Source: a virus. From it: DNA of 44,641 nucleotides. Both the position numbers and the translations under genes were made by a program. Each line of letters starts with the position of its first letter. Position 1 is the first letter of the stretch. The notes under the pieces are model-generated. The model did not search any database. It was not told the DNA's origin and saw nothing but the letters and a program-made list of their open reading frames with translations. Location: IMG/VR virus record IMGVR_UViG_3300030104_003057, positions 1-44,641 of that record; one strand, given 5' to 3'. Below, one piece after another: positions 6,165 to 35,747 of this stretch.

Positions 6165-6381
6165 AGAATTAATTAAAGTAGCTAAAGAACCTATTGTTGA
6201 TTCAGACGACGATATATCAGCTGACAGATTAAAAAATGCAGCTGCTACTAAAAAGCTAGCTATATTCGATGCTTTTGAAATACTTAATCGTATAAATGAA
6301 GAAGAGAATATGCTTGAAGGTAAAGTAGAAGAAAAAAAAGAAACAACATTTAAAGGCTTTGCAGAAGGTAGATCAAAATGA
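6109..6381 (+). CDS. Candidate terminase small subunit
   Basis: A 90-residue charged, mostly helical protein that overlaps the upstream gene by 56 bases and the large-terminase start by 4. An N-terminal helix (KKSIIQAGQKAVEELIKVA) is followed by an acidic turn (DSDDDISADRLKNAAATKK) and a second helix (LAIFDAFEILNRINEEENML). Position immediately before the large terminase, small size and helical build fit the DNA-recognition subunit, but no clear helix-turn-helix motif can be read. Its start at 6109 is the only ATG that covers the conserved-looking helices. Confidence 0.55.
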   Translation: MNIKETKKSIIQAGQKAVEELIKVAKEPIVDSDDDISADRLKNAAATKKLAIFDAFEILNRINEEENMLEGKVEEKKETTFKGFAEGRSK

Positions 6382-8615
6382 ATTACGAACAAAGTTTATA
6401 TAAAATAGTAGAACCAGTAAAACTAACTACCATAAAAAGATTAAACAAATCTAAAAAGTGGGAGTATGGATATAACAAAGAAAACGATATTGTTGTTATA
6501 TCTAAGACGGGTATGATTGGTGATATTATAGAAATACAAGGTTTGCAAATAGCTTTACCTAATCAACCTAAAAAAATATATTCTTGTAGCGATAAAAAAG
6601 AAGAGCAAAAATGGAAACAATTTCCAGCTAATCCAGCTTTTAAGAAAATTAAAACTGTATTTGACTGGCAAGATTATCCAGATGATTTTAAACAAAGTCA
6701 CTATGAATATATAGATGAAGAGTTTAAAAGAAGAGAAGAAGGTTTCTGGTTCATCAACAACGACGAACCAACCTATATAACAGGAACACACTACATGTAT
6801 TTACAATGGAGTAAAATAGATGTTGGTGCACCAGATTTTAGAGAGGCAAATAGATTATTCTTTATATTCTGGGAAGCTTGTAAAGCAGATAAAAGAAGTT
6901 ACGGTATGTGCTATTTAAAAAATAGACGTTCTGGTTTTTCTTTTATGAGTTCAGCTGAAACTGTTAACTTAGCCACATTAGCTAGTGATAGTAGATTTGG
7001 GATATTGTCTAAAACCGGTGCTGACGCAAAGAAAATGTTTACCGACAAGGTAGTACCGATTAGTTTAAATTACCCTTTCTTCTTCAAACCAATACAGGAC
7101 GGTATGGACCGGCCAAAGTCCGAGCTCGCTTACAGAGTGCCAGCAAAAAAGTTTACTCGTAAAAAAATACGTGAACGTGAAGAGATGGATGATGTTGAAG
7201 GATTAGATACAACTATAGATTGGAAAAATACAGGTGATAATAGTTATGATGGTGAAAAACTAAGTTTATTAGTTCATGATGAGAGTGGTAAGTGGGAAAG
7301 ACCTGATAATATAAAAAATAACTGGCGAGTTACAAAAACGTGTTTACGACTAGGTAGTAGAATAGTTGGTAAGTGCATGATGGGAAGCACATCTAACGCA
7401 TTAGATAAAGGAGGTGATAACTTTAAAAATTTATATAATGATTCAGATGTTACCAAGCGAAACAGAAATGGACAAACTAAGTCGGGATTATATTCTTTGT
7501 TTATTCCTATGGAATGGAATTACGAGGGATTCATTGATGAATTCGGACGACCTGTGTTCACTGATCCTGAGCAACAAACATTTGATCCACACGGATTAGA
7601 AATAGAACAAGGTGTGATAGATCACTGGGAAAATGAAGCTGAAGGAATGAAAGACGACCAAGACGCTTTAAATGAATTTTACCGTCAGTTTCCAAGAACA
7701 GAAGAACACGCGTTTAGGGACGAAACAAAAAATAGTTTATTTAATCTTATAAAGATATATGAGCAAATAGATTATAATGAAGGAAATAGAAACTCTTCGG
7801 TATTAACAACTGGTAACTTTCAATGGGCTGGTGGTAAAAAAGATACAATGGTAACTTTTAACCCAGATCCAAATGGTAGATTTAAAGTTAGTTGGGTACC
7901 AGGAGGTAAATTACAAAATAACGTTATATTAAAAAATGGCGTAAAATATCCAGGCAATGAACACATGGGTGCATTCGGTTGTGACTCATATGATATATCT
8001 GGAACAGTAGATAAACGAGGATCAAAAGGAGCTTTGCACGGATTAACAAAGTTTTCAATGGAAGACGCACCAGCAAATACCTTTTTCCTTGAATACATAG
8101 CAAGACCACAAACAGCTGAAATATTTTTTGAAGATGTTTTAATGGCATTAGTATTTTACGGCATGCCACTACTTGCTGAGAATAACAAACCAAGGTTATT
8201 ATACTATTTGCGTAGAAGAGGTTATAGAGCTTTTAGTATAAATAGACCTGATAAAGTTTGGAATAAATTATCAACAGCAGAAAAAGAAGTTGGTGGTATA
8301 CCAAACTCTAGTGAAGATATAAAGCAAGCTCATGCTGCTGCAATTGAAATGTATATCAACGATCATGTTGGTTTATTAGAAGATGGTACTTATGGTACTA
8401 TGTATTTTAATGAGACATTAAACGACTGGTCAAAGTTTGATATAAATAGAAGAACGAGGCATGATGCCTCTATAAGTTCTGGCTTAGCAGTAATGGCTTG
8501 CAACAGACATTTATACCGACCAAATCCAAAACAAAAAAGAGAACCATTAAATTTAACCATATCAAAATATAATAACGCTGGATTTTCATCTAAGATAATT
8601 AAAAATAAAATATGA
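6378..8615 (+). CDS. terL: Terminase large subunit
   Basis: A 745-residue packaging motor and nuclease. ATPase part: KNRRSGFS at residues 181-188 is the degenerate Walker A of large terminases, and LLVHDE with D301-E302 is Walker B plus the catalytic carboxylate. Nuclease part: GCDSYDISGT with D536 as first metal ligand, FFLEYIARP in the core strand region, and RRTRHDASIS with D696 as the last catalytic acid. It pumps DNA through the portal encoded immediately downstream and cuts concatemers. Length is at the upper end for terminases, mainly from a long N-terminal extension of about 100 residues. It overlaps the portal gene by 4 bases. Confidence 0.93.
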   Translation: MNYEQSLYKIVEPVKLTTIKRLNKSKKWEYGYNKENDIVVISKTGMIGDIIEIQGLQIALPNQPKKIYSCSDKKEEQKWKQFPANPAFKKIKTVFDWQDYPDDFKQSHYEYIDEEFKRREEGFWFINNDEPTYITGTHYMYLQWSKIDVGAPDFREANRLFFIFWEACKADKRSYGMCYLKNRRSGFSFMSSAETVNLATLASDSRFGILSKTGADAKKMFTDKVVPISLNYPFFFKPIQDGMDRPKSELAYRVPAKKFTRKKIREREEMDDVEGLDTTIDWKNTGDNSYDGEKLSLLVHDESGKWERPDNIKNNWRVTKTCLRLGSRIVGKCMMGSTSNALDKGGDNFKNLYNDSDVTKRNRNGQTKSGLYSLFIPMEWNYEGFIDEFGRPVFTDPEQQTFDPHGLEIEQGVIDHWENEAEGMKDDQDALNEFYRQFPRTEEHAFRDETKNSLFNLIKIYEQIDYNEGNRNSSVLTTGNFQWAGGKKDTMVTFNPDPNGRFKVSWVPGGKLQNNVILKNGVKYPGNEHMGAFGCDSYDISGTVDKRGSKGALHGLTKFSMEDAPANTFFLEYIARPQTAEIFFEDVLMALVFYGMPLLAENNKPRLLYYLRRRGYRAFSINRPDKVWNKLSTAEKEVGGIPNSSEDIKQAHAAAIEMYINDHVGLLEDGTYGTMYFNETLNDWSKFDINRRTRHDASISSGLAVMACNRHLYRPNPKQKREPLNLTISKYNNAGFSSKIIKNKI

Positions 8616-16451: not shown

Positions 16452-19400
16452 ATGCCGGAAATTAAACACAACTTTACAGCCGGTAAAATGAACAAAGATC
16501 TTGATGAAAGATTAGTTCGTAACGGTGAATATAGAGACGCATTAAACATACAAGTTAGAACCACTGATGGCGATAGCGATGGTGTTGGTGACGCTGGTTC
16601 AGTGCAGAATATAAAAGGTAACACAAAAATAGCTGAAGCATATAAAACTGTAGGTTATAATGGTAATGAAACCAAAATCATAGCTAGTGTAGCTGATGAA
16701 AAAAACGACTGTGCTTATTTTTTTGCTGCAGCACCTTTACCTCAACAACAAGCTGGAGCTAAAAGAGGTTTTTTAGAAAATCTTGAACCTAGCTTAATTG
16801 TTGACTTAACTGACAACCCATTAAACTCAGATGTTAGATGGGTTGATAGTATAATTCAGGTAAACGCTGATGGCACCGACACAGAAGTTGTTTTTGTAGA
16901 TTATTATGCTAGAACTGGACAAATTATAAACTATATCACACAAGAAAATTTTAATGCTTTAAATGGCTCTACAACACCTTTCAACTCAATAACATTCAAC
17001 GCACCTATTGCTAGAATTGGTATGAGGCTTTTTATTCAAAGAACCCCTTCAGGCGGTGGTCTTACAACCAATTATTTATTCGATAGCAATGGAACTGCTG
17101 GTGTTGAAGTTATAAATATTAATGGAAACCAAGTTTTACTTGAGTTTGGACAATCCATTGATTTTAGTACTAGTGACTTTAATTCAACTGAAACTCAAAA
17201 TATAGTTGTAAAACTAATTCACAAAGAAAGAGTTTTAGAGTTTGACTATGATAGTTTAATAAGTTCTTCTGTTAATGTTATTGATGATTTATTATTTTAC
17301 ACAGATAATAAAAGTGAACCTAAAAAAATAAATATAACAAGATCTAAATTAGGTAGTATTCAAGATAATTACCTAACAGATCCTGAGCATACTAAACTTT
17401 TTGTTAAAAACGCACAAGGTGAATTAGTTAATGTAACAGAAGTTGAAAACTATAATGATACCTCTTTAAGTGCGTCTGTTGATGCTCATGGTGATGTGGA
17501 AAAAGAACACGTTACAGTTATAAGAAAGAAACCAACATCACCACCAACGTTAGAAATGAGTCCATCAGATAGAGAAGGTCCCATAGAGTTTGATATACAA
17601 TACCCTGAAATTATAACAGATAGTAATGGTGAAGATTATCAACTTGGTGGTTTTATAAACTTAACACAAAACTATGTTGATTTCGACGAGAGTGGTGATG
17701 AGTCTTCAGGTGAAATAGAAATATTTGAACTTCAAGCTGGTGATGGTGTAGCAAGCGTGGGTTCTGAAAGAGTTGTTAAGTTTCCTTCTCAAGTAGATAT
17801 TAGGTTAAGCGATATATTAATATTTGAAAGTGTTCAATTTGGGTTTTCAAATCCAGTAATTGTGCAAGCTACTGTTGAAGAAACAGATATTGCAAATGCA
17901 GTATCTGGTCAGTTTAAGTGGCATAGAATAAGATGTACTGTTATTGATCCAATGTTAGAGCAACTTAATCCAGATCAATGGACTGTAACAATACAGCAAC
18001 CAGCAGCGTTATTTGAAACTAAATTTGGAAGATTTGCGTATAGATATAAATACGAAGACAACGAATATTCAGCGTTTTCACCTTGGTCAGAATTAGCTTT
18101 TTTACCAGATAGTTTTTCCTACACGCCAAGCACTGGTCACAATGAGGGTATGGGTAATAGTGTTAGAAGACTTAAGGTTAGAGATTTTATACCTAATAAC
18201 TCTTATAGACCAGATGACGTTAGGTCTATAGATATACTATGGAAAACAACAGACGATCAAAATGTTTATGTTGTTAAAACTATAACTAGAGAATTAGATG
18301 ACGAGTGGGAAGATTTTGTAGACAACAACTCTATTGAATCTACAGGTTCTTTAAGCATAACTTCTGAAATGATTAATAGAACTCTACCAGCAAATCAACT
18401 ACTAAGAACCTGGGATAATGTTCCAAGATTTGCGCTAGCTCAAGAAGTTACAGCTAGTAGAATAGTATATGCTAACTATGTTCAAGGTTACAATATCGAT
18501 ACTGTTGTTGGTTTAAAACAAACAATTATATCTGATTCAGTGGATTTTCCAAATCCACAAAGATCTGTTAAATCAATGAGATCTTACAAGTGGGGCATGG
18601 TATTTGGTGATAAGTATGGTAGAGAAACACCTGTACTAGCTAGTAGTTATAAAACATCTTCTGGTGAAACAATAACAGGCACGGCGTCTGTAGCCAAACA
18701 ACTATCTTCATTTTCTAATAAATTTGAATTACAGCAAAATTGGAACTCACAGCCTTTACCTTGGATGGATTATGTTAAGTATTATGTTAAAGAAACATCT
18801 AGTGAATATTACAATTTAATTTTAGATAGATGGTACGATGCTGGTGATGGTAATATATGGTTAGCTTTTCCTTCTGTAGATAGAAATAAAGTTGATGAAG
18901 AAACCTACTTGATACTAAAAAATGAACATGGTAGTCAAGCCGCTGTTCTTGATAAAGCTAGATATAAAATACTAGCAATAGAAAATGAAGCTCCTGATTT
19001 TATAAAAACAGAAAGAAGAAAGTTTAATAGAATAGAAATAGATAGAGATAATATATACACAGCTTCAATTGCTAGTGAGATTACGGGTGTTCCTGATAAA
19101 TTAATAAACAACTCTACTTTGCTAACCATTAATCAAGATGAAAACACTATACATCGAAGTGATTTTAAAGGTAGAAAAAAAGTTAGAATAGTAGGTGTTT
19201 ATACACCAGATGGTACTGACGATCCTATTGAAGTTTTTAGTCCTTATAAGTCTGTTACACAAATAAAAAATCAAAACGACGGTGGTTGTGTTATATCTGA
19301 AAAATTTACAAATGAAGAAGCGAATATGTTTCTTAAAATATCTAGCGCACTAGCGAGTGCTGGATTAGAAGCTGAAATAAACGTAACAGATGTTGATAAT

Positions 19401-22400
19401 AATGAAAGCGACGATTATATTTACTACTACTTAGAATATATGGACGAACAAACAAATAACCTTCCTGAGTTTGATGGTAGGTTTTTTGTTAAAATTCAAA
19501 AAGATCAAGCACTAAGAGATAGAGTTTTAAATGAAGGTCCATTAGATTACATTGTGACAGATAGTTTTGATATAGCTTACATATCAAATTCAAATACAAA
19601 TCCAGCGGTAAGCGGTCCTCAAAAAGATTTTACATGGCCAACAGATAATCCCGGATTCTCTGGAAGTGCTGTTGAGGCTATGGTGTCACATGAAACTCTA
19701 TCAGGAGAAGTATCACAAGATCACAGTAATCACTGTGCTGCTGACTATAACAACTCTCAACTTACAACAGCGCCTTATTCAACAAATCCTGAAATAGACG
19801 CATCAGAACAAGGCAGTATACCAGCTTTTGGACCTGGTAACTTTTTTGCTACTAGACAATTTTGGACAGATTGGGATCAAAACAAATCAACTAATATATT
19901 TCTAGATAATGCTCCAGCAGCTACTGGGCATGAAGATATGGTTTCTACTTTTAGTTTGTATTTACCTAACAATTCAACGGTTCTTGACAATGGCGGTACA
20001 GGTGATTATGCAACGGGTTATTACAATGGTAACTTAATGCCATCATATGGTGGGGGTACAACCCCAATAAGTTATACGTGGAAAAGCCAGATATGGGGAC
20101 CAAATGATTATATGGAGCTTAATTCTCAATTTTACAATACGAATGGCGGTAGTGGCTCAGGTGGTACGCAAATCAACCCAAACTACCAACCAGCTGGATT
20201 ATCTCAAGGTACTGCACAAGATGGACTTTTTGGTCAAATGACGTTTTCGGCTGTAAGTAATCAAGAGGTAAATAATCTTAGTGAAGGCAACAATACTAAT
20301 GTTGTAACTAATCAATTTTCACCTGGATCTGATATTGTGTTTAAAGCTAAAATACAGCAACCAGGAACTTTATTTAGATTTGCAGCAGACCCAGATCAAA
20401 TTGTTTATAGAGTTATTGAAAATTCTCAAATAATAACAGCTTACTACGTTTATTTAGGCGCTCAATATTTCGATCAACCAGATGTTATTTCCAACAATAC
20501 TATTGATGATATTTTTGAACACAGAGGTCCAATGAATATAGGTACATCAAGTAATGGTACAAATGGGCAAATGCTTCAATATAACTACTATAGATCTAGC
20601 CCGAACTTTAATTCACCAGCTCAAACCAACCAGTCAGGTGCAAACAATAACCATACTCCTGTTGAACCAGCTCAACTTAGAACTAGTATAGTCGTTAGGT
20701 TTGAAAGAGTAGGTACTGCTGGAGAAAGTATACCAAACTCAGGGGTAGATGTTGAAAGATTCGATCCTAGAGGTGAGGTAACACATGATGGTCTTGGTTC
20801 TTTTCAAATTCAAATACTACAAAGATCATCAGAAGGTGAACTAAGTACAGATGATGTTGTAACAGAATCTTCATGTTGGGAAACAGAGCCAAAAGAAAGT
20901 GCAGATTTAGATATATACTATGAAGCTAGTTCTGCTATACCTATGAAACTAAATATGTTAAATATAATGGAGTTTGTAGGTTCTAATGCAAACCGTAATT
21001 TTGCAAGCTTAGTTTATGTAAAAACTAGAATGTTTAATCAAGTTGTGCAGAATGTTAATCTTGATGGAGATGCTTTTGCTTTTAGAACGATTGGAGATGA
21101 TGGTGTTGTTGTTCATAGTAACTTCTCTATTAATCAAAATAATAATAGTATAAGTTCTAGTGCTATATCACCTAGTTTAGATAATAATTTAAATTTAATT
21201 TCAGTTGAAGATACTATATGTTTTAGAAGATCAAATGGTTTTGAAACTAAAAGTAAAGTACTAGATCATTATAAAATAGTGTATGATTTTGATTCAGAAA
21301 ATGGAGAATCTTTACAGCTATCAGATAGATATGGTCCTGTTAGTTTGCCTCCAAACAGCACCGCTGGTTTTGATACATTTGCTGTACCTGAAGACGGTAT
21401 TGGGGGAGCGGTTTTAATATATAACGGTAGTATAGCGTCAGATCCAGGAACTGTAAACATACCTACTATAAACGGTCAAACCGCAGCAATGCCATATCTT
21501 GGTAATATTATAGATGGTCAAGCGCTTGGTGACGTTAATAATTGGCCTGTAAAAGTTGGTATGAATGTTATTCCTTCTCCAGGCTTTGAAGATATGATTA
21601 TACCTGGAACATATGTTACTGGTGTTGAAGTAACCTTAAATACACCTTTTACTGGATCAAACACCATATTTATTACTGTGCAACTTAACAACCCCATTGT
21701 TGGTAGCTTTAATAACGATACTGTTTTAGAAATAACATACGCTGATGTTACTGGTGTATTTAAAATAGATGATGATGTTTGGCAATATCCGGTTAAGTTG
21801 CCTTGGTTTAATTGTTATTCATTTGGTAACGGTGTTGAGTCAGATAGAATACGAGATGATTTTAATGCTCCACAAATAGATAATGGATGTAGAGTATCTT
21901 CTACGTTTTTAGAGTATGGTGAAGAAAGAATAGGTAGTGGTATAATACACTCTGGTCTTTACAATTCAACATCTAGTGTTAATGACTTAAATGAATTTAA
22001 CATGGCTGAGAAAATTACTAAAAATTTAAATCCAGCCTACGGTTCTATACAAGCCATGAAAACTAGAGAGAACAATATAGTAACATTTACAGAAGATAAA
22101 ATATTAAAAGTTCTAGCCAATAAAGATGCTGTATTTAACGCAGATGGTAATCCGCAACTTGTTGCAACAAATAGAGTTTTAGGAGACGCAACGCCCTTTG
22201 CTGGTGACTACGGTATATCTAAAAACCCAGAGTCATTAGCTAGTGATCAATATAGAATGTATTTTACTGACGCGCAAAGAGGGGCTGTTCTAAGATTATC
22301 AATGGACGGGTTGACACCTATATCAAATGTAGGTATGAAAACGTACTTTAGAAACAACTTAAAAACATGTGATAGTTTAATAGGTACTTTTGATACCGTT

Positions 22401-23099
22401 AACGGTGAGTATAACTTATCGTTATTAAGAAAACCAGCTAATGCTAGTGTAGATAGTCCTTATGTTACTGTTTCATTTAACGAAGGTAGTAAAGGTTGGG
22501 TTAGTTTTAAAAGCTTTGTTCCATTAACAGGTGTTTCTATTAGTGGTAAGTATTTAACCGCACCATCAGGTTATAAGTGGTCACAATCCTCTGGTTCTTC
22601 TAATCAGCAAGTTTCTGGTGTTACACATAACATCTATGAGCATTACGCTAGTGATTCTCATAATGTTTTTTATGATGTTGGCGCAGGGGATGCTCCTTCA
22701 AAAATAAAAATTTTGTTCAATGATTTACCAAGTGTTATTAAATCTTTTAAAGCAATTAACTACGAAGGATCTCAAGGAAATGTAACACAAAATAATGACG
22801 ACACGTCAGAGTATTATAATATATCTGCTTCAAGTGGATGGCAAGTTAGTACTTTTAAAACTGATATTGAGCTTGGTAAAGTTAATGAATTTATTAAAAA
22901 AGAAGGAAAATGGTTTAATTATATTAAAAGTTTTGCTGAATTTCCTCTTTTATACACATCAACTTCAACAGAAGACTCCGGTGACGTAGGCAAGTTTGCT
23001 GTACAAGGATTAGGTAAACCCTTGGCTAATACTGATGACACCCAAAATCAAGTAGATATAAATATAAACACAGAAGATACAGAAGATACAGATGGCTAA
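16452..23099 (+). CDS. Giant stabilization / tail-hub-like protein
   Basis: A 2215-residue virion protein. The N-terminus (KHNFTAGKMNKDLDERLVRN, then GEYRDALNIQVRTTDGD) is the hallmark of the 'stabilization protein' family near the neck and tail genes of crAss-like and other Bacteroidota phages. The C-terminal part has KILKVLANKDAVFNADGNPQ, RVLGDATPFAGDYGISKNPE and RMYFTDAQRGAVLRLSMDGL, also typical of that family. Between them are about 1500 residues of beta-rich sequence including FAYRYKYEDNEYSAFSPWSE, which suggests fibronectin-like or propeller-type domains. It is much longer than most relatives I recall. No coiled coils, so it is not a tape measure. It ends in an acidic NTEDTEDTDG and overlaps the next gene by 8 bases. 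Confidence 0.78.
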   Translation: MPEIKHNFTAGKMNKDLDERLVRNGEYRDALNIQVRTTDGDSDGVGDAGSVQNIKGNTKIAEAYKTVGYNGNETKIIASVADEKNDCAYFFAAAPLPQQQAGAKRGFLENLEPSLIVDLTDNPLNSDVRWVDSIIQVNADGTDTEVVFVDYYARTGQIINYITQENFNALNGSTTPFNSITFNAPIARIGMRLFIQRTPSGGGLTTNYLFDSNGTAGVEVININGNQVLLEFGQSIDFSTSDFNSTETQNIVVKLIHKERVLEFDYDSLISSSVNVIDDLLFYTDNKSEPKKINITRSKLGSIQDNYLTDPEHTKLFVKNAQGELVNVTEVENYNDTSLSASVDAHGDVEKEHVTVIRKKPTSPPTLEMSPSDREGPIEFDIQYPEIITDSNGEDYQLGGFINLTQNYVDFDESGDESSGEIEIFELQAGDGVASVGSERVVKFPSQVDIRLSDILIFESVQFGFSNPVIVQATVEETDIANAVSGQFKWHRIRCTVIDPMLEQLNPDQWTVTIQQPAALFETKFGRFAYRYKYEDNEYSAFSPWSELAFLPDSFSYTPSTGHNEGMGNSVRRLKVRDFIPNNSYRPDDVRSIDILWKTTDDQNVYVVKTITRELDDEWEDFVDNNSIESTGSLSITSEMINRTLPANQLLRTWDNVPRFALAQEVTASRIVYANYVQGYNIDTVVGLKQTIISDSVDFPNPQRSVKSMRSYKWGMVFGDKYGRETPVLASSYKTSSGETITGTASVAKQLSSFSNKFELQQNWNSQPLPWMDYVKYYVKETSSEYYNLILDRWYDAGDGNIWLAFPSVDRNKVDEETYLILKNEHGSQAAVLDKARYKILAIENEAPDFIKTERRKFNRIEIDRDNIYTASIASEITGVPDKLINNSTLLTINQDENTIHRSDFKGRKKVRIVGVYTPDGTDDPIEVFSPYKSVTQIKNQNDGGCVISEKFTNEEANMFLKISSALASAGLEAEINVTDVDNNESDDYIYYYLEYMDEQTNNLPEFDGRFFVKIQKDQALRDRVLNEGPLDYIVTDSFDIAYISNSNTNPAVSGPQKDFTWPTDNPGFSGSAVEAMVSHETLSGEVSQDHSNHCAADYNNSQLTTAPYSTNPEIDASEQGSIPAFGPGNFFATRQFWTDWDQNKSTNIFLDNAPAATGHEDMVSTFSLYLPNNSTVLDNGGTGDYATGYYNGNLMPSYGGGTTPISYTWKSQIWGPNDYMELNSQFYNTNGGSGSGGTQINPNYQPAGLSQGTAQDGLFGQMTFSAVSNQEVNNLSEGNNTNVVTNQFSPGSDIVFKAKIQQPGTLFRFAADPDQIVYRVIENSQIITAYYVYLGAQYFDQPDVISNNTIDDIFEHRGPMNIGTSSNGTNGQMLQYNYYRSSPNFNSPAQTNQSGANNNHTPVEPAQLRTSIVVRFERVGTAGESIPNSGVDVERFDPRGEVTHDGLGSFQIQILQRSSEGELSTDDVVTESSCWETEPKESADLDIYYEASSAIPMKLNMLNIMEFVGSNANRNFASLVYVKTRMFNQVVQNVNLDGDAFAFRTIGDDGVVVHSNFSINQNNNSISSSAISPSLDNNLNLISVEDTICFRRSNGFETKSKVLDHYKIVYDFDSENGESLQLSDRYGPVSLPPNSTAGFDTFAVPEDGIGGAVLIYNGSIASDPGTVNIPTINGQTAAMPYLGNIIDGQALGDVNNWPVKVGMNVIPSPGFEDMIIPGTYVTGVEVTLNTPFTGSNTIFITVQLNNPIVGSFNNDTVLEITYADVTGVFKIDDDVWQYPVKLPWFNCYSFGNGVESDRIRDDFNAPQIDNGCRVSSTFLEYGEERIGSGIIHSGLYNSTSSVNDLNEFNMAEKITKNLNPAYGSIQAMKTRENNIVTFTEDKILKVLANKDAVFNADGNPQLVATNRVLGDATPFAGDYGISKNPESLASDQYRMYFTDAQRGAVLRLSMDGLTPISNVGMKTYFRNNLKTCDSLIGTFDTVNGEYNLSLLRKPANASVDSPYVTVSFNEGSKGWVSFKSFVPLTGVSISGKYLTAPSGYKWSQSSGSSNQQVSGVTHNIYEHYASDSHNVFYDVGAGDAPSKIKILFNDLPSVIKSFKAINYEGSQGNVTQNNDDTSEYYNISASSGWQVSTFKTDIELGKVNEFIKKEGKWFNYIKSFAEFPLLYTSTSTEDSGDVGKFAVQGLGKPLANTDDTQNQVDININTEDTEDTDG

Positions 23100-27125: not shown

Positions 27126-30100
27126 ATGAAAATAGAATATATATTAAATGGTAAAGTCGTAAAGATTGAGCCAAAACACGAAGCATATTTTTTAAAAAAT
27201 AATCCTACGGCAATAAAATCTACAGTGCCGGGAAAGTCTCAAGAGGCGGGCCAGCCTCAAACAAATCAACAAACAAATACGGAATCCAACTTGGAAGATG
27301 GTTCTTTGGAATCACTTGCAGCTAAAATAAAGCAGTCTGAAAAGAAAATATTAGACAATCAGTATGAGGAGAGATTAGGTTCTATTAATGAACAGTTGAA
27401 ATCTATTGATGGTGATGAAAACCCTGAAAAATATAATAATTTAGTAAACAACTACAATTCTATATTAAAAGAATATGAAGTTGAATATGAAATATTAAAT
27501 AATAACATTAAGGGGTATAATAATATTTACAACAAAGATAATCCTAGAATATCTAACAATCCAATAGGTTATTCACTTGTTGATAGTAGGTTTCAAAACA
27601 TTGAACTAAGTGACGAACTACCTGATTATGACATGAAAGAAAAAGAAATAGCTAAAATGTCAAAAAGGGCTAGAGATAAAAAAGCAGAGTTTATATCTAG
27701 TACTCCAGATCAAATATTAACTTATAACACAGCTAAAGAATGGTTTGATATAAATGCTAGTTACAGAAGTGATGTAAGAAAAAAAGTTGTAGAAGATGGT
27801 ACTCATGGTTATAATCCCAAAACAAAAGAACTATTTGAATTAACAGAGTCAGAAAGAAACATGAAACAAGCTACTCATAATGATATAGTAAAAGATTATA
27901 AAAAAAGATATGAAGATGGTATGTTAAGTAAAGATGAGTACGCCGAGGCCTTAGAAAATATGGAACTCATAACCCCGGGTTATGATGACTACCTTGAAGA
28001 TGTTCCTTTATTTTATAGGTTGCAAACTAAATTCATGACTAACACTGGTATTGGTAGATTAATCATGAATACTGGCGTAGGGTACGCAAGAACCGCGTCA
28101 AGTATAGGTACTGGATTAATGTCCACTATTGAAAGTGAGCGTATACTTGAAGGTGCTAAACAAGGTAAGACAATTGAACAAATGGTTGAAGATCGCGATA
28201 TATCCCCTGCGCATCTACTACAAAAAGAATTCGATAAAATAAATTATCAATTTTCTACAAAACATTTTGATGAGCAAGGTGGAGTGATGACTCCAAAAGA
28301 TCTTATACAAGCTGGTAGAATTGGAGATGCTGCAACTTTACTAGCTGAACAGTCTATAGCTCAAATTCCTAGTTTAGCAATTAGTGTTGGTGGTGGATTA
28401 GCGTTTGGACCTGCAGGTGCTGCACTTGGAGCTGGTGTATTAGGTACTAGCGTGTACGGACAAGAAATGGTAGCTGATTTAGAAAGATTATATATTGATA
28501 AAGGTATAATTATTACAGATAAAGAAGCGTCACTATTAAGAAAAGGATCTGCTATGAAAGCTGGTGCTGAGTGGGCTGGAGAGTTTGCTGGAGCAATGTT
28601 GTTTAGAGCGGGTGGTGGTCTACTTGGTGGCGGAGCTGCTAAGAAAACGGTTAAAGCGTTTACTGATAGTTATACGAAAAGATTTATAGCGGCTTACATA
28701 GGAGGTTCTTTATCAGAAGGTTTATCTGAATCTTTCACTAGTGTAATGCAAGATGGTACAGATAAGTATATTTATGGTGATGAAGTTGGTTTTAAAGATT
28801 TCTGGAGAAATGGTGTTAATAGTTTTTTAATAGGTAGTGTGTTAGGTGGTGGTCTTTCCAGTACCATGACTATTCTTGATAAACCCACTAAACAACAAGC
28901 TCAAATGGCTGTAGCTTCCATGAAGTGGAAAACAAAAAAGTCAAAGATTCAAAATGACATAATAGAAACAGAGTTAAAACTAAAAAATGCTAAAGGCCAA
29001 GAGAAAAATTATTTTGAAAACAAATTAAAAGGATTAAATAAGCAAAACACTTTGCATGATCAAAAATTAGAGGCTGCTTTTGATAATATGACAAATAAAG
29101 AGCTAATTGATTACGCTAAAAAACAAGATCAATTAAGTAAACAATTAGGTTTGTTAAATACTAAAATGTCTGCTAAGGACAAGAAAGATGTAGAAAAACG
29201 TATAGATAAAATATTAGAAGAGCAAAATAGTTTAACAGATGGATTTGTTGATGTGTCAACAGAAAAAGCTATTGGTGAATTTCTTCAGAATTTAGCCGAG
29301 ATTAAAAAACAAGCAGCAACTTTAGGTTTTGGTAGTGATTTAAAAATAAAATATTTAAACAATGAAAAACAAATAGAGGCTGCTAAAAAAGAACTTGAGG
29401 AAAAAAATATTAAATACAGTGGTGAAGAGGGTTTGTTTCTATCAAATGATGGTGTTATATATGTGAACACTATGGCTGCGGCGGCTGTTGGTCAAACAAA
29501 TGTTTTAGGCCACGAGCTACTTCACTACATGATGTCTAAAAACTTTAAGGTAGATAATGCTTCTATGAAGAAAATGGTAGATGCTCTTAAAGATTTTTTA
29601 AGTACTACTGAAAGAGGTAAAGCTATAATAGATCGTATAGATAAAAGATTAATACAAAACGGGTATTTAAGTAGAGACGGTAAGTTTCAACCTGGAGCTT
29701 TGGAAGAATATTTTCAAATGTTAAGTGATATTATAAAGAAAAATAAAATACCTTTACCAGATGCTAGTCCTAAAACATTATCAAAAGCCTTTAAAGATAT
29801 GTTTACTGGTCTTGGTCTTGGTTCTGTTGAATTGAATACAGGGCAACAAATATTTGATTTTATAAAAACATATACAGAGCATGTTAATAGAAAGGGTTTG
29901 TTTGGTCAAATAACTAAAAGACGAGTTTTAAAAACTAAATTAGAAAGTAAGCTTGGTGAAAAAGCTGATCCAAAAGAAACTCAAGAAACTCAGGATAAAC
30001 GTTCTAAAACAGAGGCCGAAAACATAATTAATGAAATAGGTTCTGAGTATGGCTGGGATAATGTTAGTTGGAAAACTGTAGGACACGTTTTTGCTATTAA

Positions 30101-33100
30101 GACAATAGAAGAAGAAAGTTTACTAGATAGATTAATAGCCGCTAAATTAAAGGTACCAATGTCACCAGCTAGAACAAAAGAATTTATAAAAAAGGTTTTA
30201 GCTGAATTAACTCCTCACATTAAAAACTTTAATCCAGAAATAAATGATAGTTTATTTGGTTGGATTAATTCTCAAATAGCAAATAAGGCTGGTAACGTAT
30301 ATAACAGAGAATACAAAGTAACACAAAGAGTTCAAGATATTGATGCTAGAACTAGTGAGGGTGCTCTTGTTTTTCAAGTAGAAGCTGATACTTCATTAGA
30401 ACAAGATCTTATAGATCAAATAGGTTTAGATGACAAACAGCAAGATATGTACTCTGAGCTTAGAAGAAGGTTGAATTTAGGTAAGGAAATGATGGACAAA
30501 GTTCGTCGAGCTGTTATAAAAACTTTTGGTACTAAACTACCAGATGTTAATACTAAAAAATTTAAAGATGAGCTTCAAAAAAGATTTAGAACAGAACTTA
30601 AAAAAACCATACAAGATTTAATAGGTTCTAGAAATAATTATAATGAGTTTTTAAAAAATAACTTTGAAGCTGTATATAACGCTTTACCAGTTGAAACATT
30701 AGTTCAAATGGAAAGGTCTGTTAAGCCAGAGCAGAGAATATTTACTAAATCAAAAAGAGTAACTAAGCCAGTAGAAGTTGATAAATTAATAAGTGAAGGA
30801 TTATTACCTAAAGACACTAATAGGTTATCCGGACCTCAATTACATATAAAAAATCCATATCCTGGTCAAGCAAAAGTAATGGCCTTTTTTAGGGGAACTA
30901 ACATGTTACAGGAATTAGGGTATGAGGTTGGTGCTTCAACTCTTGGTACTAGAAAAGATAAACTAGCCATGGAAATAGGTGTTGAATTAGCTTTTGATGC
31001 AACGGCTGAAACTGTGCAGATGCCTGATGTTCAAGAAAAAAGAAGAGGCATACTACAGTTACAAGGACAAGAGCAGGCTGTCAACGAATTAGCAGTTATA
31101 GCTAAACAAATAAATAGAGATCCTAGAGTTAAATTTAGTGCTAGTTCTGCTGGTTCTAAAGTATTTAAAGATGGTGTAGACTTAGTAAATGCTATATCAG
31201 CTCAAGGTGATTTAACAGGTATAGCTAAGCTAAATAGTAAAGGAAATTATGTAGGGCTAAATGAGTATGCGGATATACCTTCTAGTACTATAAACTTTGT
31301 GATAAAAAACTTTTATGAAAACAATAAGATATCTTTACACCCTGGAGATATATTAAAAAAATTATCTAAACTAGTTCCAGCTGGTGACACTAGAACAAAA
31401 GGATTTGAACAGTATGTTATTGACAGGTTTGGTAAAATAGAAGGAGTGGATCTTGTGTTTGAATATCAATCAGAACAAGGTGTTGATATACCAGATGTTT
31501 ACGCTAAGTTTCACGGTCAAGACTTTCATGTTGAAGTTAAAATGTTTGATGCTCAAGTTGGTAGTTTAACTATTAACGATGTTAATTTAGAAACTGGTAA
31601 AATTACAATAGATAAAATAGATAATTTATCTCAAGAAAACCAAAACAAAATAAAAGAAATAGCAAAAAAAATAGTTCCAGTTTTAAAAGATGTACAATCT
31701 AGAGCTAAAGAAATGTCTTCAATGGGCAAAGAAGATATCATATCTTTAATAAGACAAGCAAATAAAAAGTTACCAAGAAATCAACAAATAAAAATACCTA
31801 AGTCTATAACAAAGCAAGATATAAATTATTTAAAAAATTGGAATAGTCCAAAGAGTTTTATGCCAAACTGGGCTCACGGTGTGTTAAAAGCAGAGGGATA
31901 TTGGAGTAGATTAACACAAAGAGCTACGTTTACTCAAACACTAATAGAAAACTTTTACTTAAACAAAGCTACACCGACTAACTACATATATATATTAGGT
32001 AAAGGACTTTTTAGTATAGGTGGTGACGTTTTAAACCTTGGTGTTTCTAGATTAGAAGGTACATTTAGTGTACCTATAAGACAAGTTAAGTCTTCTCAAA
32101 AACAAACTGTAAAAAAGGTAACAACAAAAACAGGTTATGTTAATATTAATCTCAGAGCCATACCAGTTGTAGATAAAATAACTAGCAAATCAGACATAGA
32201 CATTTTAGATAAATCTGGTGTAGACGCTTTATCTAAAGCAGGTAAACATTTAGAAAGCGTAAAAAGATCTAAATCTATTGTAACTTATAATAGCGCTATA
32301 GCTAACAAAATTAAGTATAGTAAAAGTGGTAAAAAAACAGGTATGTCAACGTTTGATTTTGACGACACAATGGCTTACACTAAGTCTGGAGTTAGAGTTA
32401 CTATACCAAACAATGATGGTAAACCTAAACCAGGTAAAAAAGTTATATTTTTAGCTGGTGGCGCTGGTAGTGGTAAGGGTAATGTTATTAAAAAGTTAGG
32501 CTTAGAAGGTATGGGTTTTAAAATAGTTAACCAAGATATATCATTGGAATGGCTAAAGAAAAACCATGGTTTACCTGAAAATATGAATGAACTAACAAAA
32601 GAACAAAGAAGTTTATTAGGTAAATTAGGTCATCAAGCTAGAGGTATTGCTAGAAGAAAAATGATGAAGTTTCAAGGCAATGGAAATGGAGTTGTAGTTG
32701 ATGGCACTGGTGGATCAGCAAAGCAAATGCAAAAGCTCGTAGAAGAGTTTGAAGCTAAAGGATATGATGTTAGCATGGTGTTTGTAGAAACTTCATTAGA
32801 CGTAGCCTTAGAGCGTAATAGAGCTAGAAAAGAACGTTCGTTACTTGATGTTATTGTTAGACGTAATCACGAGTCTGTACAAAATAATAAATCTACATTT
32901 AAAGATATGTTTGGAAAAAGATTCATGGAAGTTAACACAGATAACTTAACAATGGATAGCCCTATGCCAACAGAGCTTATAGAACAGATGAATGATTTTG
33001 TTTTTAGTTATGAAAAGAGAAGATTAGATGCAGCTGAATTTGCTGAGCAAGGTAGTGTTATACTAGAACAAGGAGGTGAGTTTGATTTTTCAGAATTTAA

Positions 33101-35747
33101 CGATGTTGTTGAAGGCACGCCTGGTCCACTGTTAGACAAAGCTAAACAAAGAGCTGAAAAGTTTGGAACTAAAGACATGTATATTTTAACCGCTAGGCCT
33201 CAGGCTTCCGCTAAAGCTATACAAGAGTTTTTAAAATCTCAAGGTTTGAATATACCTATAGAAAATATAACTGGACTAGCCAATAGTACTGGTAACGCTA
33301 AAGCGAAGTGGTTCTTAGAAAAGTTTGCGGAAGGTTATAATGACATGTACTTTGTTGATGATGCTTTAGCCAACGTTGAGGCTGTCAAAAAAGTTCTTGA
33401 TCAGTTAGATGTTAAATCAGATGTTGTTCAGGCAAAGGTTAAATTTAGTAAAACAGCTGGTAAAGAATTTAATGAAATAATTGAAGAGTCACAGGGTACA
33501 GATGCTGATAGAATAATTTCTCAAGCTGAAGCAAAAAGACTAGGTAGAAATAAAGGTTGGTGGAGAATATTTGTTCCACCATCAGCTGAAGATTTTAAAG
33601 GTTTGTTATATAGGTTTTTAGGAAAAGGAAAACAAGGCGATAAACACATGGCGTGGTTTAAAGACAATCTTTTAGATCCATTTGCCAAAGGAATAAGATC
33701 TTGGAACATCTATAAACAAAACATGGTTAATGAGTATAAACAATTGAAGAAAGATTTTAAAGATGTAACTAAGTCTTTAAACGATAAGGTTCCTGGAACA
33801 ACGTTTACTGTTGATGCTGCAATAAGAGTATATTTATGGAAAAAAGCTGGTTTTGAAATACCTGGACTAGATGCTGCAACTGAAAACATACTAAATGATT
33901 ACGTTACAAATAATACTGAAGTAAGAAACTTTGCTGATGTATTGAGTGCTATAACTCAGACTAAAGACGGTTATGTTAAACCTGGTAATAATTGGAGTAT
34001 ACAAACTATAGCAACTGATTTAAATAATGTTGTAAACAAGGTTGGTAGGAAACAATTTTTAGCAGAATACTTAGCGAACGTTGAAGCTATTTTTACTACA
34101 GAAAATATGAATAAAATAGAAGCTCTGTATGGAACTGGTTTTAAAGAAGCTCTAGAAAACATATTATACCGCATGGAAAACGGTAGGAATAGAAACAGAA
34201 TATATGATAGAAACTCTAATAGATTATTAAACTGGATAAATGGCTCTATAGGTGCTATTATGTTTTTTAATATGAGATCTGCTATACTTCAAACTATATC
34301 TACTGTTAACTTTATTAACTGGAGTGATAACAATATATTTAAAGCATCTGCTGCGTTTGCTAATCAAAAACAATTTTGGTCTGACTTTGCTATGTTATTT
34401 AACTCACCTCAGTTAAAACAAAGAAGAGCTGGTATACAAATAGATGTATCAGCATCAGAGCTTTCAAGAGCTTTTTCTGACGGTAGAGGAACACCGCAAT
34501 CTGTTATAAACTGGTTACTAGAAAAGGGTTTTACACCCACCCAAATAGCAGATAGTTTTGCTATAGCATTTGGTGGTGCTTCTTTTATTAGAAATAGAAT
34601 AAAAACCTACATAAAACAAGGTGTGACTGAGGCTCAAGCTAAAGATAAAGCGATGCTTGACTTTCAAGAGATAGCTGAAGAAACACAACAGTCTTCAAGA
34701 GAAGATTTAATATCTCAACAACAAGCTAGTGTTTTAGGTAGATTAGTTTTAGCTTTTCAAAATGTAACAATGCAGTATACACGTTTAATGAAGAAGTCAC
34801 TGTCTGATATAGTAAACGGAAGAGGTGATATGAAAACTAATATATCTAAGGTTATATATTATGGTGCTGTACAAAATATTATATTTGCATCACTACAAAG
34901 TGCTTTGGCTTTCATGATGTGGGGTGATGAGGAAGACGAAGAAGTTATAGATGATAAAGCTAAAAGAACATTAAACTCTGCTTTCGACTCTCTACTAAGA
35001 GGTACAGGTATGTATGGAGCTGCTGTTGCGGCAATAAAAAATACTATACTTAGATGGCAAGTTGAAAAAGAAAAAGGTTATGGTAGAAGAGATGACGGTA
35101 GAATAATACTAGAAGCATTAAACTTTTCTCCACCTATTGGTAGTAAGCTTAGAAAAATATATTCAGCTATTAAAACAGAGTCTTATAATATGGACGAAAT
35201 TAGTGATGAAATAGGTTTTAGAATAGAAAACCCTAAAGTGTATGCTTTAGCTAGTATAATAGAAGCTGCAACTAATATACCACTACAAAGACTAGTTAGA
35301 AAGGCAAATAACCTAGAAGAAGCCATAACAAGCCAACATGAAACATGGCAACGTATAGCATTAGCTCTAGGTTGGGATATGTGGTCATTAGGTATAAAAG
35401 ACGAAGAGTTAGAGCAAGCTAAACAAGATGTTAAGAAAAACATAAACGATAGAAGAAGAGAGGATAAGCGTAAGAAGAAAGAAGATGAAGAAAAGGATAT
35501 GCAGAAAAGGGGTTTTAAAAAGATTAGATGCTCTGGTGTAAGATCAAACGGTGAAAGATGTAAAATAATGTCAGATTATACTAAAGATAAAAAATTCTTA
35601 TGTACACATCACATGGAGTTTAAAGATGGTATGGATAGAGATGGCGATGGATTAAAAGAATATAGATGCACTGCTATGAAATCTAATGGCAAAAGATGTA
35701 AGAATAAAACAGAGAATAAAAATAAGAAGTGTTATGCTCATCAATAA
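27126..35747 (+). CDS. Giant polyvalent ejection protein: protease, nuclease, kinase-phosphatase
   Basis: 2873 residues. Helical N-terminus; glycine-rich hydrophobic segments at about 415-450, 479-508 and 565-582 that could cross membranes. HELLH at 796-800 with a downstream ALEEYFQML fits a zinc metallopeptidase. Residues 1035-1053 (FNPEINDSLFGWINSQIAN) resemble sigma-70 region 2. IPDVYAKFHGQDFHVEVK, with P1456-D1457 and E1470-x-K1472, is a PD-(D/E)XK nuclease core. A HAD phosphatase begins at D1744-F-D1746, is interrupted by a P-loop kinase (GGAGSGKG, 1778-1785), and resumes with ILTARP (about 2020-2025) and FVDD (2076-2079). Residues about 2368-2612 form a conserved internal-virion region. 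Two Cys/His modules end the protein (2802-2829, 2848-2872). VKFS, IKYS and VKFS mark junctions at 1335, 1729 and 2105. Position after gp14- and gp15-like genes suggests ejection into the host. Confidence 0.85.
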   Translation: MKIEYILNGKVVKIEPKHEAYFLKNNPTAIKSTVPGKSQEAGQPQTNQQTNTESNLEDGSLESLAAKIKQSEKKILDNQYEERLGSINEQLKSIDGDENPEKYNNLVNNYNSILKEYEVEYEILNNNIKGYNNIYNKDNPRISNNPIGYSLVDSRFQNIELSDELPDYDMKEKEIAKMSKRARDKKAEFISSTPDQILTYNTAKEWFDINASYRSDVRKKVVEDGTHGYNPKTKELFELTESERNMKQATHNDIVKDYKKRYEDGMLSKDEYAEALENMELITPGYDDYLEDVPLFYRLQTKFMTNTGIGRLIMNTGVGYARTASSIGTGLMSTIESERILEGAKQGKTIEQMVEDRDISPAHLLQKEFDKINYQFSTKHFDEQGGVMTPKDLIQAGRIGDAATLLAEQSIAQIPSLAISVGGGLAFGPAGAALGAGVLGTSVYGQEMVADLERLYIDKGIIITDKEASLLRKGSAMKAGAEWAGEFAGAMLFRAGGGLLGGGAAKKTVKAFTDSYTKRFIAAYIGGSLSEGLSESFTSVMQDGTDKYIYGDEVGFKDFWRNGVNSFLIGSVLGGGLSSTMTILDKPTKQQAQMAVASMKWKTKKSKIQNDIIETELKLKNAKGQEKNYFENKLKGLNKQNTLHDQKLEAAFDNMTNKELIDYAKKQDQLSKQLGLLNTKMSAKDKKDVEKRIDKILEEQNSLTDGFVDVSTEKAIGEFLQNLAEIKKQAATLGFGSDLKIKYLNNEKQIEAAKKELEEKNIKYSGEEGLFLSNDGVIYVNTMAAAAVGQTNVLGHELLHYMMSKNFKVDNASMKKMVDALKDFLSTTERGKAIIDRIDKRLIQNGYLSRDGKFQPGALEEYFQMLSDIIKKNKIPLPDASPKTLSKAFKDMFTGLGLGSVELNTGQQIFDFIKTYTEHVNRKGLFGQITKRRVLKTKLESKLGEKADPKETQETQDKRSKTEAENIINEIGSEYGWDNVSWKTVGHVFAIKTIEEESLLDRLIAAKLKVPMSPARTKEFIKKVLAELTPHIKNFNPEINDSLFGWINSQIANKAGNVYNREYKVTQRVQDIDARTSEGALVFQVEADTSLEQDLIDQIGLDDKQQDMYSELRRRLNLGKEMMDKVRRAVIKTFGTKLPDVNTKKFKDELQKRFRTELKKTIQDLIGSRNNYNEFLKNNFEAVYNALPVETLVQMERSVKPEQRIFTKSKRVTKPVEVDKLISEGLLPKDTNRLSGPQLHIKNPYPGQAKVMAFFRGTNMLQELGYEVGASTLGTRKDKLAMEIGVELAFDATAETVQMPDVQEKRRGILQLQGQEQAVNELAVIAKQINRDPRVKFSASSAGSKVFKDGVDLVNAISAQGDLTGIAKLNSKGNYVGLNEYADIPSSTINFVIKNFYENNKISLHPGDILKKLSKLVPAGDTRTKGFEQYVIDRFGKIEGVDLVFEYQSEQGVDIPDVYAKFHGQDFHVEVKMFDAQVGSLTINDVNLETGKITIDKIDNLSQENQNKIKEIAKKIVPVLKDVQSRAKEMSSMGKEDIISLIRQANKKLPRNQQIKIPKSITKQDINYLKNWNSPKSFMPNWAHGVLKAEGYWSRLTQRATFTQTLIENFYLNKATPTNYIYILGKGLFSIGGDVLNLGVSRLEGTFSVPIRQVKSSQKQTVKKVTTKTGYVNINLRAIPVVDKITSKSDIDILDKSGVDALSKAGKHLESVKRSKSIVTYNSAIANKIKYSKSGKKTGMSTFDFDDTMAYTKSGVRVTIPNNDGKPKPGKKVIFLAGGAGSGKGNVIKKLGLEGMGFKIVNQDISLEWLKKNHGLPENMNELTKEQRSLLGKLGHQARGIARRKMMKFQGNGNGVVVDGTGGSAKQMQKLVEEFEAKGYDVSMVFVETSLDVALERNRARKERSLLDVIVRRNHESVQNNKSTFKDMFGKRFMEVNTDNLTMDSPMPTELIEQMNDFVFSYEKRRLDAAEFAEQGSVILEQGGEFDFSEFNDVVEGTPGPLLDKAKQRAEKFGTKDMYILTARPQASAKAIQEFLKSQGLNIPIENITGLANSTGNAKAKWFLEKFAEGYNDMYFVDDALANVEAVKKVLDQLDVKSDVVQAKVKFSKTAGKEFNEIIEESQGTDADRIISQAEAKRLGRNKGWWRIFVPPSAEDFKGLLYRFLGKGKQGDKHMAWFKDNLLDPFAKGIRSWNIYKQNMVNEYKQLKKDFKDVTKSLNDKVPGTTFTVDAAIRVYLWKKAGFEIPGLDAATENILNDYVTNNTEVRNFADVLSAITQTKDGYVKPGNNWSIQTIATDLNNVVNKVGRKQFLAEYLANVEAIFTTENMNKIEALYGTGFKEALENILYRMENGRNRNRIYDRNSNRLLNWINGSIGAIMFFNMRSAILQTISTVNFINWSDNNIFKASAAFANQKQFWSDFAMLFNSPQLKQRRAGIQIDVSASELSRAFSDGRGTPQSVINWLLEKGFTPTQIADSFAIAFGGASFIRNRIKTYIKQGVTEAQAKDKAMLDFQEIAEETQQSSREDLISQQQASVLGRLVLAFQNVTMQYTRLMKKSLSDIVNGRGDMKTNISKVIYYGAVQNIIFASLQSALAFMMWGDEEDEEVIDDKAKRTLNSAFDSLLRGTGMYGAAVAAIKNTILRWQVEKEKGYGRRDDGRIILEALNFSPPIGSKLRKIYSAIKTESYNMDEISDEIGFRIENPKVYALASIIEAATNIPLQRLVRKANNLEEAITSQHETWQRIALALGWDMWSLGIKDEELEQAKQDVKKNINDRRREDKRKKKEDEEKDMQKRGFKKIRCSGVRSNGERCKIMSDYTKDKKFLCTHHMEFKDGMDRDGDGLKEYRCTAMKSNGKRCKNKTENKNKKCYAHQ

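What the first reader, a model, noticed from the sequence alone, without database searches (positions are those of the whole stretch)
32352..33370. HAD phosphatase interrupted by a P-loop kinase inside the ejection protein
DFDDT (from residue 1744) is HAD motif I. Only about 25 residues later a Walker A (GGAGSGKG, 1778-1785) begins a zeta-toxin/PNK-like kinase with a VVVDGTGG segment and an LERNRARKER arginine-rich region. The phosphatase then resumes with ILTARP and FVDD (about 2020-2079). The two activities look nested rather than fused end to end, a rare build for a polynucleotide kinase-phosphatase. Placed in a protein that probably enters the host cell, it might repair nucleic-acid ends or act as a host-directed effector.
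Basis: partly seen in the sequence, partly recalled or inferred. Interest (0 to 1): 0.82.

Follow-up and report, generated by a model that had tools for sequence, protein, structure and literature searches.

The report
Kinase nested inside phage phosphatase
A giant protein of an uncultured phage carries a phosphatase whose lid loop has been replaced by a complete kinase, and relatives carry nothing or a different enzyme-like domain at exactly that spot, so the loop looks like a socket for swappable enzymes; the chemistry is untested.

Summary
In the 2873-aa ORF 27126-35747(+), HAD motif I (D1744/D1746) is followed by a complete P-loop kinase (about 1767-1961), then HAD motifs II (T2022/R2024), III (K2059) and IV (D2078/D2079). 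The AlphaFold2 model puts the kinase at the tip of the HAD flap hairpin, the C1-cap site; a natural kinase-free relative closes that hairpin with a five-residue turn. Of 249 distinct relatives collected (capped searches), 163 have the site empty (3 with the kinase in tandem behind the HAD), 80 hold the kinase, 5 an ADP-ribosyltransferase-like domain, 1 an unidentified domain. Kinase presence needs at least 9 changes on each of 300 bootstrap trees, so the site is a recurrent insertion or exchange socket. After structural realignment both halves are nearest to polynucleotide kinase-phosphatases, but Foldseek alone disagrees for the HAD, T4 substrate residues are missing, and zeta-type kinases fit the kinase equally by sequence. 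Nucleic-acid end healing is plausible, not shown; so is delivery with the virion (synteny with crassvirus cargo genes). I saw no description of a P-loop kinase as a HAD cap in the papers searched. New variant of a known kind.

The parts
27126..35747 (+). Giant multidomain (polyvalent-type) protein, 2873 aa, that contains the nested element
   Evidence: N-terminal ~1700 aa variable, HAD to C-terminus conserved, in a comparison with 77 long relatives
32340..32411 (+). HAD core, first piece: strand 1, motif I, squiggle, first flap strand (residues 1739-1762)
32355..32369 (+). HAD motif I DFDDT (D1744 nucleophile, D1746 acid/base by analogy)
   Evidence: both Asp in all 41 rows of A1
32424..33008 (+). 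Inserted P-loop kinase, PNK/zeta class (about residues 1767-1961)
   Evidence: model residues 64-258 match solved kinases; Pfam Zeta_toxin and AAA_33
32457..32480 (+). Walker A GGAGSGKG (1778-1785)
32529..32537 (+). N-x-D (1802-1804); D1804 aligns with T4 PNK D35
   Evidence: N-x-D in 80 of 80 nested kinases
32691..32714 (+). VVVDGTGG (1856-1863), aligns with the GTG motif of zeta kinase
   Evidence: D[GS]TG in 80 of 80
32814..32837 (+). Arginine-rich lid RNRARKER (1897-1904)
   Evidence: RNxxRxxR in 80 of 80
33009..33434 (+). HAD core, second piece: second flap strand to last strand (residues 1962-2103)
33183..33200 (+). HAD motif II ILTARP (T2022, R2024)
33300..33302 (+). HAD motif III lysine K2059
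   Evidence: invariant K356 of segment numbering
33351..33362 (+). HAD motif IV FVDD (D2078, D2079)
16452..23099 (+). Crassvirus-muzzle-like tail protein (2215 aa) upstream; basis for the virion-cargo inference
   Evidence: PF25729 E 2.2e-5, 25.2 bits, just under cut-off 27; phrog_14478 virion structural protein E 6.2e-108
6378..8615 (+). Terminase large subunit (phage identity)
   Evidence: tblastn: 87 phage records, 68 Flavobacterium and 15 Cellulophaga phages; best hit annotated terminase large subunit

Best explanation
The segment is one HAD-superfamily phosphatase core whose flap (C1-cap) hairpin is interrupted by an intact P-loop kinase of the PNK/zeta class. In this family of giant phage proteins the flap turn is a socket: it is empty in most relatives collected and elsewhere holds the kinase, an ADP-ribosyltransferase-like domain or another domain. 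Shown: the nesting (sequence and predicted structure), the empty and alternative states, the conserved motifs, purifying selection on both domains. Inferred: both domains are active; the protein enters the host with the DNA as virion cargo; and, as most likely chemistry, the HAD removes phosphate (probably terminal phosphate of nucleic acid or a nucleotide) while the kinase adds phosphate to a hydroxyl end, so that with the phage's ATP-dependent DNA ligase damaged ends can be made sealable early in infection. My probability for the end-healing chemistry alone is about 0.35; for the architecture and socket about 0.95.
For: Alignment of nested and empty relatives. Models: in the nested form strands 53-58 and 259-264 flank the kinase; in natural empty relative L051 strands 52-56 and 62-66 are joined by a five-residue turn. 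Kinase best match C. thermocellum Pnkp kinase 4gp7, Z 17.7, rmsd 2.8, 167 aligned, also first in Foldseek (4gp6); hhalign to ten T4-like PNKs 98.5%, E 3.7e-15; phrog_505 polynucleotide kinase E 6.3e-8. HAD-only best match T4 Pnkp 3'-phosphatase 5uj0, Z 13.1, rmsd 2.5, 127 aligned; phrog_415 'polynucleotide kinase' matches the HAD half of relative L429, E 3.6e-6. 249 distinct relatives: 163 empty, 80 kinase, 5 ART-like, 1 other; motif II to IV distance 54 or 55 in all; 9 to 12 changes of kinase presence on 300 bootstrap trees. DNA ligase in 6 of 6 kinase-bearing contigs of 59 kb or more.
Against: T4 PNK acceptor arginine R38 (invariant in 10 rows) aligns with L1807. T4 R279 aligns with A2080 and R246 has no counterpart (a weak alignment: 26.6%); the comparison of the HAD with T4 PNK alone found only motif I (0.7%). 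Foldseek alone puts class C acid phosphatase first for the HAD, T4 Pnkp not in its 50 rows. Ligase is also in 5 of 7 kinase-less contigs of 62 kb or more, so it is not tied to the kinase. An ART-like domain at the same site does not obviously fit end healing. RNA_ligase (PF09414, the only RNA-ligase family searched) hit only two genes, both the same as DNA-ligase hits.
Confidence: 0.5

Rival explanations
1. The inserted kinase is a zeta-type small-molecule kinase (for example of nucleotide sugars of the cell wall) used as a conflict effector; the HAD merely houses it, or hydrolyses its product.
For: 23 of 23 kinases of A4 match Pfam Zeta_toxin; window segment E 1.6e-10 against 2.3e-10 for AAA_33. 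DGTG aligns with the zeta GTG motif. Zeta-like kinases are reported in polyvalent proteins (PMC5512222, passage). A relative is named UDP-N-acetylglucosamine kinase in the viral structure library. The socket is shared with an ART-like domain, another effector-type fold.
Against: Structural match is weaker (zeta 1gvn Z 14.4 against 17.7 for Pnkp kinase); all zeta evidence is family-level, and the same 23 of 23 match AAA_33.
Confidence: 0.27
2. Kinase and phosphatase oppose each other on one small molecule or nucleotide signal, so that the nested pair works as a switch.
For: Both active sites are conserved in the nested relatives examined; nesting in the cap would allow coupling (inference).
Against: The HAD persists without kinase in its flap in 163 of 249 relatives, 3 of them with a tandem kinase; no candidate molecule.
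Confidence: 0.1
3. The flap is only a tolerated landing place; the insert has no mechanical or chemical link with the HAD and the two serve unrelated tasks.
For: Three different occupants, repeated changes; in L049 and L050 the same kinase sits in tandem behind the HAD.
Against: A tandem copy equally suggests that kinase and HAD are kept together; in the rows collected the insertion is confined to one loop.
Confidence: 0.13

Closest known systems
T4-type polynucleotide kinase-phosphatase (Pnkp; kinase then HAD, end to end)
   Same: Same two folds; kinase related by profile; HAD motifs I-IV in the same order; HAD nearest in fold after realignment
   Different: Kinase lies inside the HAD flap; T4 R38, R246 and R279 equivalents missing; part of a 2873-aa protein. 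PMC7824862 (passage) states that in jumbo phages this HAD is usually fused to an N-terminal kinase
Bacterial Pnkp kinase domain (C. thermocellum, 4gp7)
   Same: Closest solved structure of the kinase
   Different: Only 17% identity; its PDB molecule name is metallophosphoesterase, so its phosphatase partner is not a HAD
Zeta toxin / PezT kinases
   Same: Pfam family match, GTG motif
   Different: Kinase is nested in a HAD in a giant protein; an antitoxin gene was not looked for
C1-capped HAD phosphatases
   Same: Insertion in the middle of the flap hairpin, as defined in PMC8069645 (passage)
   Different: That passage describes C1 caps as helical or alpha+beta units, and caps as shielding the active site; here the cap is a complete second enzyme domain and is exchanged between relatives
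Polyvalent proteins of phages and plasmids (Iyer et al. 2017, PMC5512222)
   Same: Giant, modular, proposed to be delivered with DNA; zeta-like kinases and ARTs occur there
   Different: Term searches of its main text found no HAD domain, phosphatase or haloacid

Membership tests
HAD superfamily | Motifs I (DxD), II (T/S), III (K), IV (DD) in order | tested here: met
   all 79 distinct rows (motif I and TAR were required there for inclusion). In the 249 rows D, D, T, R and DD were largely required for inclusion; the lysine was not and is there in 249 of 249
HAD superfamily | Rossmannoid core with squiggle and flap | tested here: met
   AlphaFold2 models and HAD structures at Z 9 to 13; prediction only
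C1-capped HAD | Domain inserted in the middle of the flap hairpin | tested here: met
   definition
P-loop kinase of PNK/zeta class | Walker A, catalytic Asp, arginine lid | tested here: met
   80 of 80 nested kinases (Walker A was the inclusion rule, the others were not); Pfam cut-offs passed
T4-type polynucleotide 5'-kinase | Acceptor arginine of the RDxxR motif (T4 R38) | tested here: not met
   aligns with L1807; its role in acceptor binding is recalled
T4-type 3'-phosphatase | DDR of motif IV and R246 (invariant in 11 rows) | tested here: not met
   window has DDA and no Arg; profile alignment itself weak (26.6%)
T4-type 3'-phosphatase | Same fold at domain level | tested here: met
   Z 13.1, best row; Foldseek alone does not list it in 50 rows
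Zeta toxin | Pfam PF06414 over curated cut-off | tested here: met
   41.2 bits against 22.3
Zeta toxin | UDP-GlcNAc kinase activity | not testable with these tools
   needs an assay
Zeta toxin | Cognate antitoxin gene | not tested
   not searched
Polyvalent protein / virion cargo | Packaged and delivered with the genome | not testable with these tools
   only synteny behind a muzzle-like gene
ART-PolyVal (alternative occupant) | Pfam PF18760 over curated cut-off | tested here: not met
   4 of 5 (E up to 1) and 9 of 10 (E up to 0.1) domains match weakly; best 28.9 bits in an un-nested copy (L520), 20.4 bits in a nested one (L429), cut-off 31.2; fold not predicted

The most novel reading that the evidence does not exclude
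Probability: 0.35. Interest if true: 0.86.

Novelty: new variant of a known kind. Interest (0 to 1): 0.66.

Why it matters
HAD caps are known as lids over the active site (PMC8069645, passage). Here the cap is itself a complete enzyme domain, with natural empty, kinase, ART-like and tandem versions around a nearly fixed core. That makes two questions directly testable with natural pairs such as L429/L433 and L352/L478: how an enzyme tolerates a nested second enzyme, and whether nesting couples the two activities. It also shows an exchange site inside a giant phage protein that may enter the host.

Tried and rejected
Chance motif or assembly chimera: rejected, since dozens of contigs share the build and both domains are under purifying selection.

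Single origin of the kinase insert followed by one loss: the first 79-row tree placed kinase-free L051, L063 and L065 inside the nested clade, but a single nested clade was not rejected (p-AU 0.066). The wider set changed the picture to repeated changes. In the wider quick tree L051 and L063 fall near the root of their half, and several forks are weakly supported.

Clean insertion at DNA level: not shown. In the ten close pairs compared, DNA on the 3' side of the site is 74-89% identical, but the 300 bases upstream of motif I only 37-62% (ungapped), so exchange of a longer piece including upstream sequence is possible; an eleventh pair failed with an error.

DNA ligase as a specific partner of the kinase: rejected by the kinase-less control. 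A separate kinase copy elsewhere in kinase-less phages: none in 19 contigs, many partial. Named phages with this HAD: none with the L051 query at E up to 0.01. Bacterial genomes: 2 loci, both without kinase. PDB sequence search for the ART-like insert: no match. Third occupant (L480): no Pfam or PHROG match. HAD-only profile against PDB sequences: chance-level hits, PNKP at E 0.56. A Mimivirus kinase paper (PMC1876218, passages) mentioned no phosphatase; a listing for virus NIOZ-UU157, which encodes a relative, gave two papers that I did not open. The treekit change counter printed nothing.

Limits of the census: the search for related loci keeps at most 80 loci a call (80 of 212, 3 of 3, 80 of 215, 80 of 472, 80 of 235, 79 of 569, 80 of 259, 20 of 20), so counts are not frequencies in nature. 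Three rows without a standard motif I were dropped (all three look empty). The patterns would not have collected a HAD with a long insert between motifs II and IV, so 'only the flap varies' holds for the rows collected. Loci are not in the 249.

Full report
OBSERVATION. The ORF 27126-35747(+) encodes 2873 residues. Pfam finds the kinase in the segment (Zeta_toxin 1.6e-10, AAA_33 2.3e-10, both over cut-off) but no HAD family; DUF2608 scores 0.016, under cut-off. The HAD of kinase-free relative L066 matches DUF2608 over its cut-off (27.3 bits against 22.6), and 23 of 26 such HADs match it at E up to 0.1.

NESTING. One search found 212 stretches that encode relatives of the segment in viral contigs and kept 80. 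48 of these 80 have the kinase between HAD motif I and motif II (277 or 283 residues apart where both were found), 30 have the HAD with the motifs only 77-80 residues apart and no kinase, and L049 and L050 have an uninterrupted HAD followed directly by the same kinase. In one alignment the two HAD pieces of the nested form fall on the two sides of the uninterrupted HAD. The AlphaFold2 model of the segment (mean pLDDT 85.4, pTM 0.70) has the two flap strands at 53-58 and 259-264 of the model, that is residues 1756-1761 and 1962-1967, with the kinase between them. The model of natural kinase-free L051 (pLDDT 78.0, pTM 0.70) has strands 52-56 and 62-66 with a five-residue turn. This is the place defined as the C1-cap site (PMC8069645, passages seen). 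The relative placement of the two domains is not certain at this pTM.

A SOCKET. A more divergent relative, L200, led to a second and larger set (569 stretches, 79 loci kept). Putting the loci together, 249 distinct HAD sequences fall into 163 empty (3 of them with a tandem kinase), 80 with the kinase, 5 with another domain of about 130 residues, and 1 with a third one. The distance from motif II to motif IV is 54 residues in 245 and 55 in 4 of 249; that from the FDF motif to motif II is 35 in all 246 where it was found. In the rows collected, length changes are thus confined to the flap; the search patterns would have missed long inserts elsewhere. Close pairs: L429 (other domain) and L433 (empty) are 89% identical in DNA over 390 bases around motif II and 84% over the first 57 bases from motif I; L352 (kinase) and L478 (empty) 89% and 77%, and 88% downstream. 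Upstream of motif I the same pairs are only 62% and 47% identical, so the exchanged piece may be longer than the insert. The second occupant resembles ADP-ribosyltransferases of polyvalent proteins: ART-PolyVal matches 4 of 5 and 9 of 10 of them, always below the curated cut-off of 31.2 bits (best 28.9 in un-nested L520, 20.4 in nested L429). A scan with it found 20 contigs. In 13 it sits in the HAD flap (11 by script, L507 and L515 by eye). In 7 it does not, and in L520, L521 and L524 it stands directly before the conserved C-terminal module, with no HAD in the stretch between.

HISTORY. On the quick tree of 249 cores (inserts left out) kinase presence needs at least 12 changes and any insert 17. 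On a thinned set of 104 rows, kinase presence needs 9 to 12 changes and any insert 11 to 14 over 300 of the 1000 bootstrap trees. Gain, loss and recombination between phages cannot be told apart here. An earlier 79-row tree had suggested one gain and one loss, without rejecting a single nested clade.

ARE BOTH DOMAINS ALIVE? In 29 aligned nested proteins the HAD catalytic residues and the kinase motif residues are invariant or nearly so. All 79 distinct rows of the first set keep the HAD catalytic residues, some of which were required for inclusion. All 80 nested kinases keep N-x-D, D[GS]TG and RNxxRxxR, none of which was required for inclusion. Median dN/dS is 0.23 for the kinase and 0.19 for the HAD over 156 pairs. 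The window's Walker A ends in GKG; 22 of 80 do, the rest in GKS or GKT.

WHAT KIND OF KINASE AND PHOSPHATASE? Realigned to solved structures, the kinase is closest to C. thermocellum Pnkp kinase (Z 17.7), then O-phosphoseryl-tRNA kinase (16.4), zeta toxin (14.4) and T4 kinase (14.3; a T4 Pnkp row spanning both domains has Z 14.6 but rmsd 21.6). Profile comparison with ten T4-like PNKs gives 98.5%, E 3.7e-15. But T4 R38 aligns with L1807, and the GTG motif aligns with that of zeta. The HAD alone is closest to T4 Pnkp 3'-phosphatase (Z 13.1) and to Pnkp1 (12.1), with the next HAD of another kind at 11.4. Foldseek alone ranks class C acid phosphatase first, at E 6.6e-4, and does not list T4 Pnkp in 50 rows. 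By profile the HAD is only weakly like T4-type phosphatases (26.6%, E 7e-4), and T4 R246 and R279 have no counterpart. So it works plausibly like a PNKP, but membership in the T4-type families fails on tested residues.

CONTEXT. The terminase (6378-8615) is nearest to those of Flavobacterium and Cellulophaga phages, so a Bacteroidota host is likely (inference). The 2215-aa protein upstream matches the crassvirus muzzle C-terminal domain just under cut-off. In crAss001 the muzzle protein is gp44 and the cargo proteins found in virions are gp45, gp46, gp47, gp49 and gp50 (PMC10172136, passages). That makes cargo status of the giant protein plausible. Its N-terminal part varies strongly between relatives while HAD to C-terminus is conserved. 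An ATP-dependent DNA ligase is encoded in 8 of 30 contigs (25 nested, 2 tandem, 3 empty), including 6 of 6 of 59 kb or more, all nested, and in 5 of 18 kinase-less contigs, including 5 of 7 of 62 kb or more: a possible partner, but not tied to the kinase. The window record itself (44.6 kb) has none.

WHAT IS KNOWN. Jumbo-phage work describes the PNK-type HAD as usually fused to an N-terminal kinase (PMC7824862, passage). The polyvalent-protein paper mentions zeta-like kinases and ARTs; term searches of its text found no HAD domain or phosphatase (PMC5512222, passages). Another HAD with its cap in the flap is the capsule phosphatase CrpP (PMC10299916, passage). Paper searches for a kinase as a HAD cap or a nested PNKP showed none in the rows listed (listings and passages only, open-access papers). 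Relatives of the protein already lie in a UniProt-based collection under names such as UDP-N-acetylglucosamine kinase, so the sequence is not new; I saw no description of the architecture.

VERDICT. The nested build is real and is one state of a socket in a constant HAD core. Its chemistry remains open between nucleic-acid end healing and a zeta-like effector.

Noticed in passing
27126-32230 and 33435-35747: N-terminal ~1700 aa of the giant protein are highly variable between relatives while HAD to C-terminus is conserved; L032, L033, L035, L036, L041 and L042 carry some 430-500 extra residues between HAD and the C-terminal module.
   Followed up: partly
giant protein residues 1731 and 2107 (nt about 32316 and 33444) and relatives: A linker motif like [VIL][KRQM]FS[KR] recurs: 13 found against 0.7 expected by shuffling in 13 proteins (pattern chosen after seeing examples); could be processing sites.
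   Followed up: partly
L520, L521, L524: ART-like domain directly before the conserved C-terminal module, with no HAD in between.
   Followed up: partly
L350 and L351 (contig IMGVR_UViG_3300025131_000066): Two copies of the nested locus, 83% identical in the matched stretch, in opposite orientation on one contig; duplication or assembly artefact.
   Followed up: no
31446-31544: Segment VDLVFEYQ...HVEVKM looks by eye like a PD-(D/E)xK nuclease core; not tested.
   Followed up: no
29511-29525: HELLH, a possible zinc metallopeptidase motif in the giant protein.
   Followed up: no
33-1052: Chaperonin Cpn60-like phage protein (PF00118, E 3e-25).
   Followed up: no
44021-44641 (-): Weak match to ribonucleotide reductase at the contig end (E 0.0058, under cut-off).
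   Followed up: no
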